This document shows, one piece after another, positions 19,555-54,026 of a stretch of 64,000 bases of DNA. Numbering within the stretch: position 1 is the stretch's first letter; each line of letters opens with the position of its first letter. A program made the position numbers and the translations under genes. A model generated the notes under the pieces. It searched no databases and had not been told where the DNA came from. It was given only the letters and a program-made list of their open reading frames with translations. The stretch comes from Deltaproteobacteria bacterium (lineage in GTDB: Bacteria; Desulfobacterota; Desulfarculia; JACQYL01), in contig JACQYL010000054.1 of NCBI GenBank assembly GCA_016208165.1, positions 1-64,000 on the forward strand. The letters run 5' to 3'.

Positions 19555-19738
19555 TCGAAAACGGCGCCGAGGACAGGCCTGTTCGAGAGAATGACTGGTT
19601 GTTTTCGATCCCTATAACAGAGTGGTACTTTGCCCGGCGGCGGGTCTTTACCCGAGGAGTACATAAGGGATCGAGCCTGCCGTGTCATGTGAACCGGTGC
19701 GTCAAGTCTATTTCAGGATTTATCGCTGGGAGAAGAGA

Positions 19739-20398
19739 ATGCCAATCACGCAACATGAGCCGGAACTTCGGTTGCACGAACGGATAGAGAATGCCGTCGC
19801 CCGGACTCAGGATCATTTCTTCCGCGACCAGGACTCCGAAGGGTACTGGTGGTATCCTCTCGAATCCAATGAGACCATAACCGCCGAGTACTTGATGTTG
19901 TTGGCTTTTTTGGGTTTGAACGAACCCGAAAAAACGAGGCTGATCAGAAATCATATACTTGAAACCCAGAGGGCGGACGGAACTTGGAGCATTTATCATG
20001 GAGGGCCTGGAGATATCAGCACGACGATAGAAGCGTATTTCGCGCTCAAGTTGGCGGCCGTTCCCACTGACATGCCCGAAATGCGGCGGGCGAAGGAATT
20101 TATCCTGGACGAAGGGGGGATTTACCAGGCTAGGATATTCACCAAGATCTTCCTGGCCCTGTTCGGTTGTTTTCCGTGGAAAGACGTCCCTTCACTGCCC
20201 GTTGAGATTATGTTGCTCCCGCCGAACTTCATTCTTTCCGTATACCGATTTTCCAGTTGGGCACGGGCTACCCTGATTCCGCTCACAATCCTGCTCCCCA
20301 CAAAGCCCGTGAACGAGTTGGGACGGGTGACTGGGCGGGAATCCAGCCCCCAATGGTCAACTCGCTTCTTGCCCTCCACACACTGGGTTACCCGGTAG
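19739..20398 (+). pseudogene. shc: Squalene-hopene cyclase, 5' fragment
   Basis: N-terminal part of squalene-hopene cyclase: the QW-type repeats and the conserved sequence FPWKDVPSLPVEIMLLP...SSWARATLIPLTIL are clear. Homology stops near 20330 (NELG); the last about 22 codons to the stop are read out of frame. In intact cyclases the KPV position is followed by about 65 more residues before the GDWAGIQPP motif; here that motif follows almost at once and in another frame. ATG at 19739 is preceded by GGGAGAAGAG. The fragment cannot make an active enzyme because the catalytic DxDD motif is in the 3' part. Confidence 0.85.
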
Positions 20399-21471
20399 AT
20401 CATCCGATAATCCAGAAGGGTTTGGAAGCCCTGGAACGATTCTGCATTCGACGTGAGCATTCACTCGAGCTGCAGGCGTGTGTGTCCCCGGTGTGGGACA
20501 CCGGCCTTACCTGCCTGGCCCTGCTGGCGTCGGGGGTGCCGCCGGAGCATCCTTCGGTTCAGAAAGGCGCCCAGTGGTTACTGAATAAGCAGATTTTTTC
20601 GGGTGGCGACTGGCAAGTCCGGGTTCCTTCCGGAAAGGCCGGGGGATGGGCGTTCGAATTTTCTAACAGCCACTACCCGGACGTGGACGACTCGGCTGTT
20701 GTACTCATGGTTCTGAAGAGGGTTCTGAACGGTGGAAATGGCGACGTCCCGGATCGTCTGAAGGCCGGAATGGAATGGGTGCTGGCGATGAGAAGCCGTG
20801 ATGGCGGCTGGGGAGCCTTTGACAAAGACAACAGCAATCAATATTTGAATAAGATACCGTTCGGCGATTTGAAAGCCATGATCGATCCCAGCACGGCGGA
20901 CCTGACAGGTCGAGTGCTGGAAATGATGGGGTGCTTTGGGTATAAAGGGGATCATCCTCTTGCGAAAGCCGCCATCCGGTTCGTTCGTGAAAAGCAGGAA
21001 GAGAGCGGTGCATGGTGGGGCAGATGGGGTGTGAATTACATCTATGGCACGTGGTCCGTACTGAGCGGTTTGAAGGGTATCGGGGAAAACATGAGTCGAC
21101 CGTATGTCAGGCGTGCGGTGGCTTGGCTCAAGGAGCGACAAAATGAAGACGGCGGATGGGGGGAAACGTGCGATAGTTACCATAAGTGCTCTTACAGCGA
21201 GTGCTCCAGCACGCCTTCCCAGACAGCCTGGGCTCTTCTGGCTCTGATGGCGGCGGGAGAGGCGGAGTCGCCGGAAGTGAGCAGAGGGATCCGATTCTTA
21301 CTGGATCGCCAGAAAGAAGACGGATCATGGGAAGAAAAAGCGTTTACCGGAACGGGCTTTCCCAAATATTTCATGATTCGTTACCAAAATTACCGGAATT
21401 GCTTCCCTTTATTGGCTCTGGGCAGGTACAGTCAGTTTCTGAAAAACGGACATATTGGGAGCGGGGACTGA
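20257..21471 (+). pseudogene. shc: Squalene-hopene cyclase, 3' fragment
   Basis: C-terminal two thirds of the cyclase. From about 20322 the frame reads GTGDWAGIQPPMVNSLLAL and continues with VSPVWDTGLTCLALLA, the catalytic acid motif YPDVDDSAVV, GGWGAFDKDN, RWGVNYIYGTWSVL, and the terminal GTGFPKYFMIRYQNYRNCFPLLALGRY. The residues before about 20320 in this frame are not homologous. Intact protein converts squalene to hopene at the membrane. The missing length must be 1 more than a multiple of 3, about 200 bases, so this is a deletion with frameshift and not a point error. All C-terminal catalytic motifs are intact. Confidence 0.88.
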
Positions 21472-38525: not shown

Positions 38526-39476
38526 TTACTCTGCGGCGGGAGATTCAGAAGATGCAATAAGAGCTTCCACTCTCTTCTGATCGTCTCTGGATATATTCAT
38601 GAACTGAAGTCCGGCGGCCAACGAGCCATTTGACTGGAGTCGGAGTACCTTACAGTCCGCACTCCACTCTTTGAGTGGCTGGCCTTCGAAGCGCAAGACC
38701 ATACGAAAAGGCTCGGCCGGTATCATGCCTTCTTCCAGCTTTATTTTGTCCAGATATGCCCCGCCTTGGCTCAGGTTCCTGACAACCGCCGTTCCCAATT
38801 GACGGGTTTCGCGCCTATTTACCAGATAGGTTTCGATTTCGGCGGGTATGTTCACAAAGATCCTTGGCCAAAGCCGACGTTCGAATTCCGGCGCTCGCTC
38901 CGGGATTTCCGGATGATGGGTCAGTTCCAAGGCAGCCAGAATTTGCTCTTTAAGAAGCGATTTGTTGAGCTTCTTGCCTACGTGAACTACATACACTTCA
39001 GAGTCCGAGAGCGTCACTGCTTCTGAATCGAAGGTGCAGTAAACGATCTTCACCTCGCCATGTTCCTTAGTTCTGCGAACGGCCTTGATGACTTCCTCAC
39101 CCGAAATATCAGGCAGCCTGTCGTCGATTACCAACAGGTCTGCTCGCCGCTTCGAGCAGTGTAGCAGAGCATCCGTGCCGAAAAGGACGTGATCGAACTC
39201 GATGGAATCGATACCCTTGAGAGATTGTTGGATGGCGTTCTGGAGCTGCTCATCGGAAGTGCCGACAACGACAATTTTCTTGCCCCCCGTCAGCGCGTGG
39301 AGAGGAAGATCATACTGCTTCATGAAGGCCTCGACGCTCTTGCGGCTGACCAATCGTTCCCCCGTAATCGGGTTTTTCTTTCCTTTCAATATGCCCTGGT
39401 CAAATTTCCGTGAAATCGTGGATCTGGAAATCCCCAGGAGCACCGCCGCTTCCCCTGTTGTTAGATAAGGCTTCAT
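38526..39476 (-). CDS. Helix-turn-helix / receiver-like / PilZ domain protein
   Basis: 316 residues with three parts: an excisionase-type helix-turn-helix (about 5-52; YLTTGEAAVLLGISRSTISRKF), a CheY-like domain (about 66-185; ADLLVIDDRLPDISGEEVIKAVRR with the aspartate pair), and a PilZ domain (about 203-306) with RRLWPRIFVNIPAEI and RNLSQGGAYLDKI, the arginine and N-x-S-x-x-G motifs that bind cyclic di-GMP. It probably couples cyclic di-GMP to DNA binding, a plausible switch beside flagellar genes. It has its own promoter and terminator, so it is a single-gene unit. Confidence 0.85.
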   Translation of the reverse strand: MKPYLTTGEAAVLLGISRSTISRKFDQGILKGKKNPITGERLVSRKSVEAFMKQYDLPLHALTGGKKIVVVGTSDEQLQNAIQQSLKGIDSIEFDHVLFGTDALLHCSKRRADLLVIDDRLPDISGEEVIKAVRRTKEHGEVKIVYCTFDSEAVTLSDSEVYVVHVGKKLNKSLLKEQILAALELTHHPEIPERAPEFERRLWPRIFVNIPAEIETYLVNRRETRQLGTAVVRNLSQGGAYLDKIKLEEGMIPAEPFRMVLRFEGQPLKEWSADCKVLRLQSNGSLAAGLQFMNISRDDQKRVEALIASSESPAAE

Positions 39477-42224: not shown

Positions 42225-42698
42225 TCAGCCGCGTATACTGATGCTCTTGGCCGAAGGTTCCTGTTTTTCTCCCGCCTGAACCGGCGCGGAATGTTTTCCA
42301 TTCTTTACTCCATTGCCGTTTGCCTGGTGCATCCTCACCGCTTTACTCCAGGTTTCTCTCAATTGGGTCATCAGAACAAGCGCCTCATCGATGCCCGTAG
42401 CGTCTTTCTTTGCGTTGGCTTCCACGATCCTTCGGTTAATGAAAGCGTAAAGGCTTAACAAGTTTTTTGCGATTTCCCCTCCTTTTTCCGTGTTCAGACT
42501 GGCTGTCAATTCTCGAACTACATTTACAGCCTTTACCAGAGCATTGTGCGCGCCCTCAATGTCGTTTTCTCCGATCTTAAGCTTGCCCGTATTCAAGAAG
42601 GTGATGCCCGCATCGTACAGAAGGACGATCAGATCACCCTGGCCGACTCCTTCGATGCTCTGTTTGAGGTACTGCTGAACATGCTGTTTTGGCTGCAT
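42225..42698 (-). CDS. fliS: Flagellar export chaperone FliS
   Basis: 157 residues. It has the FliS core: the QQYLKQSIEG start, DLIVLLYDAGITFL, AHNALVKAVNVVRELTASLN and LLSLYAFINRRIVEANAKKD. FliS binds the flagellin C-terminus and prevents polymerisation in the cytoplasm. The open frame begins further upstream (42776), but GAGG lies 6 bases before the ATG at 42698. It follows fliD closely, the usual order. The C-terminal tail is longer and low in complexity. Confidence 0.93.
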   Translation of the reverse strand: MQPKQHVQQYLKQSIEGVGQGDLIVLLYDAGITFLNTGKLKIGENDIEGAHNALVKAVNVVRELTASLNTEKGGEIAKNLLSLYAFINRRIVEANAKKDATGIDEALVLMTQLRETWSKAVRMHQANGNGVKNGKHSAPVQAGEKQEPSAKSISIRG

Positions 42699-42756
42699 AG
42701 GAAACCTCGCTCTTTTTCTGATAATGATGAACGTTATTTCGTGGGCGCCGGCACGC

Positions 42757-45150
42757 TTATTGAGTGCCGGAACCACCGCCCCCTGAGTTGCTTAAGAGCG
42801 CAGTGATGCTGCTCGTCTGTTGGTTCAACCTCGCGATCTGTTCCTCCATCGCGGTGAACTGGGCCCATAGCCTCTGCTCGAGGCGATCAAGCCGGGTTTG
42901 CTCGGTTTCGATCTGTTCGCTCAATCGTAGAAGGCTTTGATCCAAACTCCCCTGAATTTTTGTTTGTTCGTCCAGTATGCCTTCGCCGTCCACATAGCTG
43001 CCCACCAACTCGTCCATTTGACGCGCCAAGCCACTGTCGTTGCTCGTATCCGTGGAACCTTCCGCCGCGAACAGCTCGTAGACCTTGTCGGCGTCGTTCG
43101 TCAATGCGTCCAGGAGATCCGAATTCAGGGAGAGATATTCACGTACAGTGTCCTCATAATTGTCCTCGCCCGTGGGTTTGAGCAGCAAATACCCCTCCTT
43201 GGCGTCATTGAAACCGCCGATGCTTCCGGGTGTGATTCCGATCTCCGCGAGATCGTTCAAAACGGGGTTCAAACCCTCGACGCCGCTGGTCGCCTGACGC
43301 CTGAGCGACTGATACAGCAATCGGAGCGAGCCGTCTTTTCGTATGAATTGGTATTCATTGTAAAGTTGGTAGTAGGCTTGATACTCTTCATATTCGTAAA
43401 TGGTCATCTCATTTTTTTCATCGTCACTTAAGGGATTCAGGTACTCTCTTTGCTCACGGTCGAGTTGAGGAGGATTCAGTCTCTCGATCATTTCGTTGTA
43501 TTGGACGATGAAAGTAGTGATGCTATCCAGCGCGCGGTCCGTATCATTCGCTATACTGATCGTAACGGACGATGTGGTGGGTGAGTGCAGGTTGAGGGTG
43601 ACTCCGCCCAGCACATCGCTCACCGAATTAGTGGAGCGGGTATAGCCGATTCCGTCCAGGGTAAAGACGGCATCCTGCCCGCGAATCCCGCTTTCTATGT
43701 TTTCCTCCACGGCCACGCTTACGGAGGAAGAACCGAAATAATCAGAGACGGTGTTGACGGATTGGGAAGATTCATCGGAAATGGTAAATCCTCCGCTATA
43801 TCCTTGCTGGGTCGAGTAGAGCGTAATGCCTCCCGCTCCATCCGTCATGGCGCGGGCAACCGTCCCCCCTCTGTTGAGCGCGTAGGCGAATGTAAGGGCA
43901 TTGTATTCGGCTTCCACGGAACTGCCGCTGTTCGTTACGGATTGTGACCATGAACCGGTTCCGGTGGCCGCGCGTTCGGTGTCGGAGATTCTCAGCTCAT
44001 CCAGCAGTCCTCCGAAGAAAGAACCTGTTCCGGAGTCGCTGCCCACATAGAGATCGTCTCCACTGTCCACGATAACTCCCGTGCCCCACCCGGCTCCACT
44101 GTAACTGCCGGTGCTGGTGCTTCCGGAAGCCGTGGTTCCCACCACCAGACCCATGGTGGATGTGTCGCCGTTGTAGGTGGCCGTCACTTTGTACCAGTTG
44201 TCGTCGGAAAGGGCGGCGTCGGAAGTGAAGGTGCGTTTGCCGTCCGTCGTCCAGATCGAGAACTCGAGATGTCCCGAAGCGTCTACGGCCAGTTCGAACC
44301 CGTCGCCGCCTTTGTTGACAATGGTTGAAGCGGTTCCAACCGTACTGGGATTGACCCAGAGTTCCAAGGTCATCTGAGCGTTGCCGTCAACGTAAAGGGA
44401 AGTACTGCCGCTGGCGGACATGGATACATAGTCATCGGCTCCATCAAAGCTGAGACCGTTATACATGAAGCTTCCGGACTCCCATGACGCTCCGTGTCGG
44501 GTGGCCGTGCTCCCGTTGCCCAAGGCGTCTTCGGAGGTCGTTCCATCCCCTTCGTTAAAGCGCCAGAGCCCGATGGTGTCGCTGTCCGCCTCGAATTCCG
44601 ACGGTGGAGCGGAATCCGAGAGGCCTAATTCAAACAGGTCGAAGGCGCTCGGGGCCGTTATGGTGAAGCCGGCTCCACTGCCTCCTCCGCCGTCTGAACG
44701 GTTAAAAAATCGCAAGCTGTCCGGTCCCTCTTTAACCACTCCCACTTCAACGAATCCGGTGCTCCAGTTGCCGGACGTGTTCCAATGAGTAACGAAGGTG
44801 TCGATATTCGTGATGGAGCCGCTCAGGGGGTTGGTCCAGGTGGCGGCGGTCGAACCCGCGTCACCGGCCAGAATCTGAAAGACCGCATTACCGGCGATCC
44901 CATCCACCCAGTTTACGGCTCCGGCTGCTTCCTGATACGCGCCCGTACTTTGCGTTTCCGGTATGTATATGTTGGTGGTAACGGAGGAACCTGTGGGGGT
45001 AATGGTAACGGTGTCCAGGGCGCGTGCGCCGCTCACCGCGGATGAGCCGGCGCTCTCGGCGTAAAGGTCATCCACCAGATTCAACGCCTTCAAAATATTG
45101 CTGGTGTCTCCCTGCGCTCCTAATTGGATCTTGTCTCCATTCGTGAGCAC
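42757..45150 (-). pseudogene. fliD: Flagellar cap protein FliD, 3' part with inserted LamG-like domain
   Basis: 797 residues in the same frame as the 5' part, separated from it by a TGA and four codons. It contains a LamG/concanavalin-like jellyroll (about 190-400; IGLWRFNEGDG, LSFDGADDYVSM, MTLELWVNPS, WYKVTATYNGD, GLLDELRISDTERA), then the usual FliD C-terminal half (VSDVLGGVTLNLHSPTTSSVTISIANDTD, FIVQYNEMIERL, EIGITPGS) and the terminal coiled coil (LRLSEQIETEQTRLDRLEQRLWAQFTAMEEQIARLN). FliD caps the growing filament. The apparent GTG start at 45150 has no ribosome binding site, so this part is hardly made alone. Confidence 0.88.
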
Positions 45151-45162
45151 CGTCCCCGTTTT

Positions 45163-46815
45163 TCAACTGATGGTGAATTTGTCGGTAGCGGAATCGTAGG
45201 CCGCGGTGACCTTTGCGCTCGAGTTATTAATGATTCGGATCAGATCTTCCAGGGTGTGGGCGCCGGCATTCACGTAGAGTGACACGCCGTTGATGGTGAA
45301 CGTGCCGCTGGTGGGTTTGAGTGAAAATCCGGCGTCGCTCAGAGTGGAGCCCGTGCTGATTCCGCCGCCGTAACTACCGGGGTTGTTGGATGCCCCCTCG
45401 TTTGCCGTCAAGTTGGCGATGGTCAGAAAATTACTGGTGTCGGTGGCGGAGCCCAGGGAAATGGCAATCCCGTTGTTTTCGTTGCCGGTCAGCAAGAAGC
45501 GATCATTCTCCGCATCATACGCAGCCGTGACCCCGGCGTCACTGCCGTTAATCAATCCGATCACGTCGTTTACGCTGAGGGATTGATAGTTACTGATCGT
45601 GATCTGAACACCATTGATCGTAAAGGCGCCGTTGGTGAGGCTGCTCGGTTCGTCGGCGAATCCGGCGCTGTTCAGTCCGGAAACGGAGGTGTTCAACGGC
45701 GCCGAAGTCGACACGCCAGAGCCTCCGTAAATGACCGATGGAACAGGGCCGGTGGTGTTCAAGTCCGCGTTCGTGTGAACGACGGCTTCTCCGACACTCA
45801 GGCCGTCATCGGAAGCGAATGATACGCCCCGGACCAAGCCGGTCGAGTTCTCGTCGATTTCGATCTGCAGAAGTTCCAGGCTGGAGGCCACCACGTCCGT
45901 GACCACTTTGGTGGATGTTGCAGAGACACCGGTCGGCGAGGCTAAGGTTCCGAACCCCAGCGCCTCGTTGGCGGAGTCGGTGGTCGACTGTACGGCCGGC
46001 GAGCTGGAGGCGCCGGACAAATCATATAAGGTCAGCTTGTCCGTATTCGCACCGGCGTCTCTGGACGTTCGCACGGCGACATAGGTGACATCCCGAGTGT
46101 CCTTGGCCGTATTCAATGCCTCGTTGATCTTGTCCTCGATGTCGGCGGCCACTCGCGAGGTGGCCGTTACATCGGCGGCGGCGTCCTCGAGAGTGACCTC
46201 GATGGTCTCGCCGGCGATAACCAGGCTCAGCTTATTGTTGGAACTCGAGATGGAGGTTCCGATGGTCCCTTCGATCGTTCCGCTCTCGAATTCCGCGGTG
46301 CTCGTCAGGGTTCGAATTTGGCCGCCGCCATTGGGTCTGAATTCGGACCGGGCGCGGAAATAATCCCCCTCATCCGTAATACTGATGTCGTGCGTGCCTT
46401 CCAGGTTGTCGGTGGGACGTCCGCTTACGGAGGTGAAGCCAAGCGTATTGGGAGGTGTTGCCACCAAAGACGCGCGTGTGTAAAGGCTTCGCGCCACGGC
46501 AGGGGTTGCGACCTGGGATATCTCGAGAACGTGTGTTCCGGGCTGCGCCTCGACACTGGCTGTGGCGGAGACATGGCTTTCATCGGAGGAGGAGACGATC
46601 TTGGATTTGAAGGTCGACTCGAGACGCAGTTCGAGAAGCGAACGACGGAACTCGAGAAGTTTGTCTTCCACACCCTGGAGTACGGTTTTCTTGAGCGAGA
46701 CCGTCTCTTGCTTCTGTTCCAGCCGGGTCAACGGTTGTCGGGCGGCCTTCATCAGGGTATCGATGATGCTTTGAGTATCCAGCCCCGAAGCCAAGCCTCC
46801 CAGTTTGATCGCCAT
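45163..46815 (-). pseudogene. fliD: Flagellar cap protein FliD, 5' part ending in an in-frame TGA
   Basis: 550 residues starting with the typical KLGGLASGLDTQSIIDTLMKAARQPLTRLEQKQ segment and the N-terminal coiled coil, preceded by AAGGAGG 5 bases before the ATG. The middle has at least two flagellin IN-type repeats (GAFTINGVQITISNYQSLSVNDVIGLIN and GTFTINGVSLYVNAGAHTLEDLIRIIN). It stops at TGA (45163-45165) within DKFTIS-*-KTGTVLTNGDKIQLG; homologs usually have Ser or Thr here, so a TCA to TGA change would explain it. With the 3' part the gene spans 1,352 codons, much more than usual. Confidence 0.9.
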
Positions 46816-52862: not shown

Positions 52863-54026
52863 ATGTCCACGCAAGCTCGTATTCTCGTCGTCGATGATGA
52901 TCCGGAACTGTGCGAAATTCTATCCGAGGTGCTCACTAGACTCGATTTCGACGTAAAAACCGCCCTGGATGGCCAAGAAGCGCTCGATCTACTAAAGAAG
53001 GATGGATTTGATCTTGTTATCACAGACCTTGACATGCCGGTGGTAGGGGGACTGACTTTCCTTCGAAAAGTCCGGAGAGCCGGAGGAGATATCCCTTTTA
53101 TCTTCATGACCGGGCATGGCACCGTGGAAGCGGCTGTGGAGGCCATGAAGTGCGGCGCTTCGGATTTCGTTCAAAAGCCGTTCCCGCTGAATGAGATGAA
53201 GGCCCTGGTCTCCGGTGTGCTCAAGCGCGAGCAGGAGAAAAGCGGGTATAAAGAGCCTTCGGAAAAGCACGGCTCCGCTCCTGAAATCATCACACGAAAC
53301 GCAACCATGAAGCACCTGATCGTCGGAAAGTTCGAGCTGGCCGACACCGGGACGCTGCTCTTGGATGAGATCAGTGAAATGGCGCCTACGCTACAAGCCA
53401 AACTGCTAAGAGTACTCCAGGAATACGAAATTACCCGTTTAGGTGGAAAAAACCCCATCAAATTGAATGTGCGAGTCGTAGCTACCACCAATCGCGATCT
53501 CGACAAGGATGTTCAGGAAGGTCGATTCAGAGAAGACCTGTTTTATCGGCTGAACGTAATCCCTTTAAGGATTCCTCCGCTGAGGGAGCGGAGGGAAGAC
53601 ATTCCTTTCCTGGTCTCGCATTTTGTGAAAAAAGCCTGCCAACGGGACGGCAAACCGGTCAAGGATTTGACTGTGAGCGCCATGGAGACGTTACAAAACC
53701 ATGATTGGAAAGGTAATGTGCGCGAATTGGAGAACACCATCGAACGCGCCGTGCTTATTTCCATGAATGACCCCATTGATCGTGAGCATCTCCTCCTGCC
53801 CGGCGAAGCTCAGCTACCGTCGCCGTTACCCTCTCAGCCGGACGAAACCCTGACGTTCCACGCCGGACACACCATTCGTGAAGTGGAGAAAAACATGATT
53901 CTCCATACGTTGGGCAAGGTAGACGGAAATCGCACCCATGCGGCCAAAATGCTGGGTATCAGCATCCGCACCCTCCGAAACAAGATCAATGAATACAGAG
54001 AGCGGGGAGAAATCTCGGACGTCTAG
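52863..54026 (+). CDS. flrC: FlrC/NtrC-like response regulator lacking the Walker A and GAFTGA block
   Basis: 387 residues. The receiver is normal (VVDDD at 9-13, Asp55 in LVITDLDMP, Thr83, Lys105). The AAA+ domain starts with ITRNATMKHLI (143-153) and jumps directly to VGKFELADTGTLLLDEISEM (from 154), so about 65-70 residues that should hold Walker A (GESGTGKE) and the sigma-54 contact loop GAFTGA are absent, in frame. The rest is intact: ATTNRDLDKDVQEGRFREDLFYRLNVIPLRIPPLRER, WKGNVRELENTIERA, and a Fis-type HTH (HAAKMLGISIRTLRNKINEY). As written it could bind DNA and be phosphorylated but not activate sigma-54. It is 14 bases after the TPR gene. Confidence 0.88.
   Translation: MSTQARILVVDDDPELCEILSEVLTRLDFDVKTALDGQEALDLLKKDGFDLVITDLDMPVVGGLTFLRKVRRAGGDIPFIFMTGHGTVEAAVEAMKCGASDFVQKPFPLNEMKALVSGVLKREQEKSGYKEPSEKHGSAPEIITRNATMKHLIVGKFELADTGTLLLDEISEMAPTLQAKLLRVLQEYEITRLGGKNPIKLNVRVVATTNRDLDKDVQEGRFREDLFYRLNVIPLRIPPLRERREDIPFLVSHFVKKACQRDGKPVKDLTVSAMETLQNHDWKGNVRELENTIERAVLISMNDPIDREHLLLPGEAQLPSPLPSQPDETLTFHAGHTIREVEKNMILHTLGKVDGNRTHAAKMLGISIRTLRNKINEYRERGEISDV

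What the first reader, a model, noticed from the sequence alone, without database searches (positions are those of the whole stretch)
43951..44583. LamG-like jellyroll domain built into the flagellar filament cap FliD
The fliD product carries, in its variable middle region, about 210 residues with LamG/concanavalin-type motifs (LSFDGADDYVSM, MTLELWVNPS, WYKVTATYNGD, GLLDELRISD). Together with flagellin IN-type repeats this makes a cap of about 1,350 residues. A carbohydrate- or protein-binding fold at the filament tip would suit adhesion to surfaces or partner cells. The domain is seen; the adhesion role is inference.
Basis: partly seen in the sequence, partly recalled or inferred. Interest (0 to 1): 0.68.

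Follow-up and report, generated by a model that had tools for sequence, protein, structure and literature searches.

The report
Flagellar cap protein carrying a LamG domain
The gene for the protein that caps the tip of this bacterium's flagellum holds an extra, lectin-like (LamG) domain that three distant relatives also carry at the same place, so the flagellum tip may double as a binding tool; in this assembly the gene is interrupted by a stop codon, and no binding has been tested.

Summary
The LamG domain is real. Residues 745-955 of the fliD frame (43951-44583, minus strand) match Pfam Laminin_G_3 (E 6.7e-19) and are predicted as a concanavalin-type jellyroll (pTM 0.81; Z up to 18.7 to solved structures). 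It is the only Laminin_G_3 in the 5.7-Mb genome. Against Deferribacterota FliDs it lies inside a ~460-residue block (582-1041) that those lack, so the insertion is LamG plus two conserved arms in the cap's head. Three other genomes of the phylum have the same architecture at the same place without an internal stop; on FliD_C the four form one clade (97/91), sister to Deferribacterota and apart from FliDs of the window's own class, which suggests exchange of fliD between lineages. One correction: here fliD is not one open frame; an in-frame TGA (45163-45165) splits it into 550 and 797 codons. A second conserved gene in the window is frameshifted, so this may be sequence error or a recent nonsense mutation. 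Tip adhesion is plausible (FliD adhesins are known) but untested. New variant of a known kind: extra domains in FliD heads and flagellins are known; I found no report of LamG in FliD.

The parts
42757..46815 (-). fliD reading frame, 1,352 codons plus stop, interrupted by one in-frame TGA
   Evidence: FliD_N and FliD_C profiles; only FliD_C in the genome
45163..46815 (-). 5' part of fliD: 550-aa ORF with FliD_N (joined residues 10-105)
45163..45165 (-). in-frame TGA at codon 551; the three relatives have a sense codon here
42757..45150 (-). 3' part of fliD: 797-aa ORF (GTG start, no convincing ribosome-binding site) with LamG and FliD_C
43693..45072 (-). inserted block, joined residues ~582-1041, absent from Deferribacterota FliDs
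   Evidence: gaps against L012, L013, L014
44584..45072 (-). arm 1 of the insertion (residues ~582-744), 38-47% identical between this FliD and the three relatives
   Evidence: no Pfam match, low-confidence model
43951..44583 (-). LamG (Laminin_G_3) jellyroll domain, residues 745-955; Pfam match 43972-44445
43693..43950 (-). arm 2 of the insertion (residues ~956-1041)
42820..43680 (-). FliD_C domain (joined residues 1046-1332) with C-terminal coiled coil
42225..42776 (-). fliS directly downstream (overlaps the end of fliD)
   Evidence: PF02561 E 2.9e-34

Best explanation
This is the primary flagellar filament cap gene (fliD). Its head region has gained, by one ancestral insertion, a ~460-residue module: two arms that together carry a LamG jellyroll. 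FliD_N and FliD_C would form the leg domains that sit on the growing filament, as in other caps; the arms would lift several LamG copies (one per subunit of the cap oligomer) outward at the filament tip, where the jellyroll binds an extracellular glycan or protein, so that the flagellum tip can hold on to a surface, matrix or cell. Shown here: domain, fold, place, recurrence in three distant genomes, and a single FliD clade. Inferred from known FliD biology: export, oligomer and tip position. Inferred only: binding and adhesion. In the sequenced copy an in-frame TGA would abolish the full protein unless it is a sequence error; this is unresolved.
For: Profiles: FliD_N, Laminin_G_3 and FliD_C in order. 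Fold: AF2 of the domain pTM 0.81, mostly strands; Foldseek/VIA hits are concanavalin-like domains, including arabinanase AbnA domain 4 solved with an arabino-oligosaccharide (5hon, Z 18.4), the jellyroll subdomains of clostridial receptor-binding fragments and their non-toxic NTNH partners, and a cyanophage tailspike. Recurrence: same architecture without an internal stop in G067, G120 and G083, aligned across the insertion. Insertion limits from LamG-less Deferribacterota FliDs. One clade on FliD_C, 97/91. Sole FliD and sole Laminin_G_3 of the genome; fliS adjacent, fliF to fliK nearby. LamG diverges faster (27-33% identity) than the cap core (41-53%) in comparisons with this FliD, as expected of an exposed part. 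Known FliD adhesins: PMC8306008.
Against: No ligand, calcium site or binding residue was shown; fast divergence is also what a loosely constrained spacer would show. A shared fold shows no function. The gene is interrupted in this assembly. The whole-ORF2 structure is low confidence outside LamG and the helical C terminus (pLDDT 57), so the geometry of the arms is not known.
Confidence: 0.5

Rival explanations
1. The LamG module is structural: a bulky cap head matched to an unusually large filament, with no binding role. The same genome has flagellins of 935 and 937 aa and a FlgL-like flagellin-family protein of 1,425 aa.
For: Large flagellin-family proteins in the genome; FliDs of about 1,000-1,170 aa without LamG occur repeatedly in the phylum, so large heads do not need a lectin-like domain; the low LamG identity fits weak constraint.
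Against: A complete LamG domain with its family motifs kept in four distant genomes argues for more than bulk; arms alone would do for bulk.
Confidence: 0.27
2. In this organism fliD is a pseudogene: a real nonsense mutation removes the cap, and the LamG domain is a relic.
For: In-frame TGA at 45163-45165; TGA is an ordinary stop here (16 of 44 large ORFs); no second FliD in the genome.
Against: Both sides of the stop are about equally conserved against G067, so any break is very recent; the flagellar gene set is otherwise present; squalene-hopene cyclase in the same window is also broken, by a frameshift, which points to sequence error.
Confidence: 0.2
3. The two ORFs are made as two proteins that assemble together, or the TGA is read through (for example as selenocysteine).
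For: ORF2 has a GTG five codons after the stop.
Against: No convincing ribosome-binding site before that GTG; the aligned residue in the relatives is not Cys or Trp; three relatives have one continuous frame; TGA is a common stop in the window.
Confidence: 0.03
4. The LamG similarity is spurious, or the domain belongs to a neighbouring gene rather than to fliD.
For: None found beyond the Ser/Thr/Gly-rich composition of the region.
Against: Pfam E 6.7e-19 and fold match; LamG and FliD_C lie in one stop-free ORF here and in one continuous frame with FliD_N in three other genomes.
Confidence: 0.01

Closest known systems
FliD (HAP2) filament cap, e.g. Salmonella, E. coli, P. aeruginosa; Helicobacter pylori FliD with extra head domains D4/D5 (PMC8306008)
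   Same: FliD_N and FliD_C framing a variable head; enlargement by extra head domains
   Different: The extra domain here is a LamG jellyroll within ~460 residues of new sequence; H. pylori D4/D5 are described as having folds similar to D2/D3
Deferribacterota FliDs (Denitrovibrio L013, Seleniivibrio L014, Deferribacterales L012), 887-926 aa
   Same: Closest FliD_C clade (100/99 with the four LamG FliDs); 35-39% identity over ~850 aligned residues
   Different: Lack the 582-1041 block including LamG
Flagellins with domains inserted in the hypervariable region, e.g. flagellinolysin (PMC5595980, 61 domain families reported in flagellins)
   Same: Foreign domain inserted in the exposed middle of a flagellar axial protein
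   Different: Here in the cap, not the filament subunit; LamG, not a peptidase; no HExxH in ORF2 by inspection
Pfam Laminin_G_3 (PF13385) / concanavalin-like domains; nearest solved by sequence 4qvs (S-layer domain protein), by fold e.g. AbnA domain 4 (5hon)
   Same: Profile, motifs and jellyroll fold
   Different: Host protein is a flagellar cap; ligand unknown

Membership tests
FliD (flagellar filament cap) | FliD_N and FliD_C domains at the two ends | tested here: met
   PF02465 E 1.2e-24 and PF07195 E 1.4e-39
FliD (flagellar filament cap) | One continuous reading frame | tested here: not met
   in-frame TGA at 45163-45165 in this assembly; relatives have one continuous frame. This bears on whether this copy works, not on homology
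FliD (flagellar filament cap) | Flagellar gene neighbourhood, sole copy | tested here: met
   fliS overlapping its end; fliF, fliG, fliH, fliI, fliJ, fliK at 55-63.5 kb; one FliD_C hit in the genome
FliD (flagellar filament cap) | Oligomeric cap at the filament tip | not testable with these tools
   needs microscopy or biochemistry
Laminin_G_3 / concanavalin-like jellyroll | Score above the curated family cut-off | tested here: met
   69.0 bits against 27.6; also over the cut-off in G067, G120, G083
Laminin_G_3 / concanavalin-like jellyroll | Two-sheet jellyroll fold | tested here: met
   AF2 pTM 0.81 with about 15 strands; Z 17-18.7 to solved concanavalin-like domains
Laminin_G_3 / concanavalin-like jellyroll | Ligand (glycan/protein, often with Ca2+) binding | not testable with these tools
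   no assay; no binding-site analysis made
Flagellar adhesin (FliD type) | Demonstrated attachment through the cap | not testable with these tools
   only precedent in other FliDs (PMC8306008)
Flagellinolysin-type enzymatic flagellar protein | HExxH zinc peptidase motif in the inserted region | tested here: not met
   no HExxH in the ORF2 translation, by inspection; no peptidase family match

The most novel reading that the evidence does not exclude
A distinct family of flagellar caps that are lectin-tipped adhesins: one ancestral LamG insertion, kept in deep lineages of one phylum and moved between them by exchange of fliD, giving otherwise different flagella a binding tip.
Probability: 0.3. 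Interest if true: 0.65.

Novelty: new variant of a known kind. Interest (0 to 1): 0.47.

Why it matters
Domain insertions that give flagella new jobs are known for the filament subunit flagellin. A defined binding domain on the cap would place a few copies of a lectin-like module at the leading end of the flagellum, with no need to alter thousands of flagellins, and would explain how a cap can be specialised for attachment. The intact relatives make it testable with an isolated domain. The fliD tree also suggests that caps can be swapped between lineages separately from the rest of the flagellum.

Tried and rejected
Whole ORF2 fold (797 aa, 18 sequences): low confidence (pLDDT 57, pTM 0.40), so nothing is claimed about the arms' fold; only the model of LamG alone is used. 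Two mixed FliD/LamG alignments (A6, A7) misplaced rows and were discarded. Selenocysteine/read-through rejected (see rivals). Phage collection: no LamG match; plasmids: four partial FliD-like matches, none covering most of the query, so no sign of a mobile carrier. Foreign contig in the assembly (4.4% estimated contamination) considered: MreB and FliF encoded in this window are most similar to a genome of the own class, but MreB is 83% identical to G067 too and the FliF tree leaves the window's place open, so this is only weak support that the contig belongs. The fold matches to clostridial neurotoxin binding fragments are read as the shared jellyroll, not as kinship with a toxin. Papers with FliD and Laminin_G_3, or FliD and concanavalin A-like: none; two with FliD and LamG are chance matches, author initials in one and no LamG in the main text of the other.

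Full report
What is there. On the minus strand, 46815 down to 42757, lies a fliD reading frame of 1,352 codons plus stop. Pfam finds FliD_N at joined residues 10-105, Laminin_G_3 at 791-948 (E 6.7e-19 when the 797-aa ORF is scanned) and FliD_C at 1046-1332. The finder's 43951-44583 equals residues 745-955. fliS overlaps its end, and fliF, fliG, fliH, fliI, fliJ and fliK lie at 55-63.5 kb. It is the only FliD_C match in the genome, and the LamG is the only Laminin_G_3 match in 5.7 Mb.

A correction. The frame is not open throughout. A TGA at 45163-45165 (codon 551) divides it into a 550-codon ORF and a 797-codon ORF in the same frame. TGA ends 16 of 44 large ORFs in the window, so it is an ordinary stop here. 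The two sides of the stop are about equally like the intact relative G067 (102 of 219 aligned residues identical in the stretch before it, 133 of 304 in FliD_C), so any real break must be recent. The three relatives have a sense codon at this place, in the alignment neither Cys nor Trp. Squalene-hopene cyclase in the same window is also broken, by a frameshift: N-terminal profile 1-177 in ORF 19682-20398, the rest in another frame in ORF 20257-21471. Sequence error is therefore a fair explanation, but only reads can decide.

Fold. The domain with short flanks (241 aa, 34 sequences: the window and viral-contig relatives) gives an AlphaFold2 model with pTM 0.81 and mean pLDDT 79, about 15 strands. 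Foldseek and VIA-align place it with concanavalin-like jellyrolls: clostridial receptor-binding fragments and NTNH (Z 17-18.7), AbnA domain 4, solved in complex with an arabino-oligosaccharide (5hon, Z 18.4, rmsd 2.8 over 184), and a cyanophage tailspike. By sequence the nearest solved structure is 4qvs, an S-layer domain protein (E 2.5e-8). A shared fold shows no function.

Not alone. A profile of the head block (A2) run over 395 genomes of the phylum gave full-length matches only in G000, G067, G120 and G083. All carry Laminin_G_3 at the same place: G067 1,378 aa, G120 1,343 aa, G083 1,252 aa cut by a contig end. None has an internal stop. In the window's own class, 40 of 63 genomes have FliD_C; the A2 profile found nothing at E <= 1e-8 in the class members that fell in the phylum sample, while the other class members were searched only with ORF2 as a single query. 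Twenty large FliDs from the phylum, mostly about 900-1,380 aa, and four from Deferribacterota were fetched and scanned: apart from the window only G067 has Laminin_G_3 among them.

Insertion. Aligned with the LamG-less Deferribacterota FliDs (887-926 aa, 35-39% identity over about 850 residues), the window's protein has one extra block, residues about 582-1041. LamG sits inside this block between two arms that have no Pfam match. In comparisons of this FliD with the three relatives, the arms keep 33-47% identity, the cap core 41-53% and LamG 27-33%. So the gain was arms plus LamG, and LamG has since diverged fastest.

History. A tree of FliD_C (44 sequences, IQ-TREE) puts the four LamG FliDs in one clade (97/91), sister to Deferribacterota (100/99), while 18 FliDs of the window's class form another clade (100/100). 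For FliF the LamG hosts do not group together: G067 (a partial sequence) falls with two other genomes of the phylum (96/91), G083/G120 stand apart, and the window's place is unresolved. MreB encoded in the window is most similar to a genome of the own class, 84%, with G067 at 83%. This fits exchange of fliD between lineages, but the FliD alignment is short (291 columns) and old paralogy with loss is not excluded.

Function. FliD caps are adhesins in some bacteria (P. aeruginosa PAK FliD and mucin) and some have extra head domains (H. pylori D4, D5) (PMC8306008). Flagellins take up foreign domains in their exposed middle, some enzymatic (PMC5595980). A LamG on the head of the cap would be displayed in several copies at the filament tip; binding to glycan or protein, hence attachment, is the most likely use, but that step is inference. 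The main alternative is a bulky head on an unusually large filament: this genome's flagellins are 935 and 937 aa and its FlgL-like protein 1,425 aa.

Known or new. No paper in the searched library holds FliD with Laminin_G_3 or with concanavalin A-like; the two that hold FliD and LamG are chance matches. Most subscription papers are not held, and no survey of UniProt architectures could be run. I call it a new variant of a known kind.

Noticed in passing
window 19682-20398 (+) and 20257-21471 (+): Squalene-hopene cyclase appears frameshifted: N-terminal profile in one frame, C-terminal part in another. A second broken conserved gene in the window.
   Followed up: partly
window 52863-54026 (+): NtrC-type response regulator whose sigma-54 domain matches only profile positions 86-167 of 168; the first half, which would hold the Walker A motif, is missing.
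   Followed up: no
L188 (G000:C117:4500-8500), L189 (G000:C123:51300-55300), L190 (G000:C117:32500-38000): Flagellins of 935 and 937 aa and a FlgL-like flagellin-family protein of 1,425 aa: the genome's flagellin-family proteins are unusually large.
   Followed up: partly
L073, L105, L106 (G067, G120, G083): Three genomes of the phylum with the same FliD-LamG architecture and no internal stop (the G083 copy is cut by a contig end); G083 and G120 are the only two held genomes of their class.
   Followed up: yes
window 42820-43680 (FliD_C) and relatives: FliD of the window groups with Deferribacterota FliDs rather than with those of its own class, unlike its closest MreB and FliF matches.
   Followed up: partly
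window 38526-39476 (-): One protein with a helix-turn-helix (HTH_17), a response-regulator receiver and a PilZ domain.
   Followed up: no
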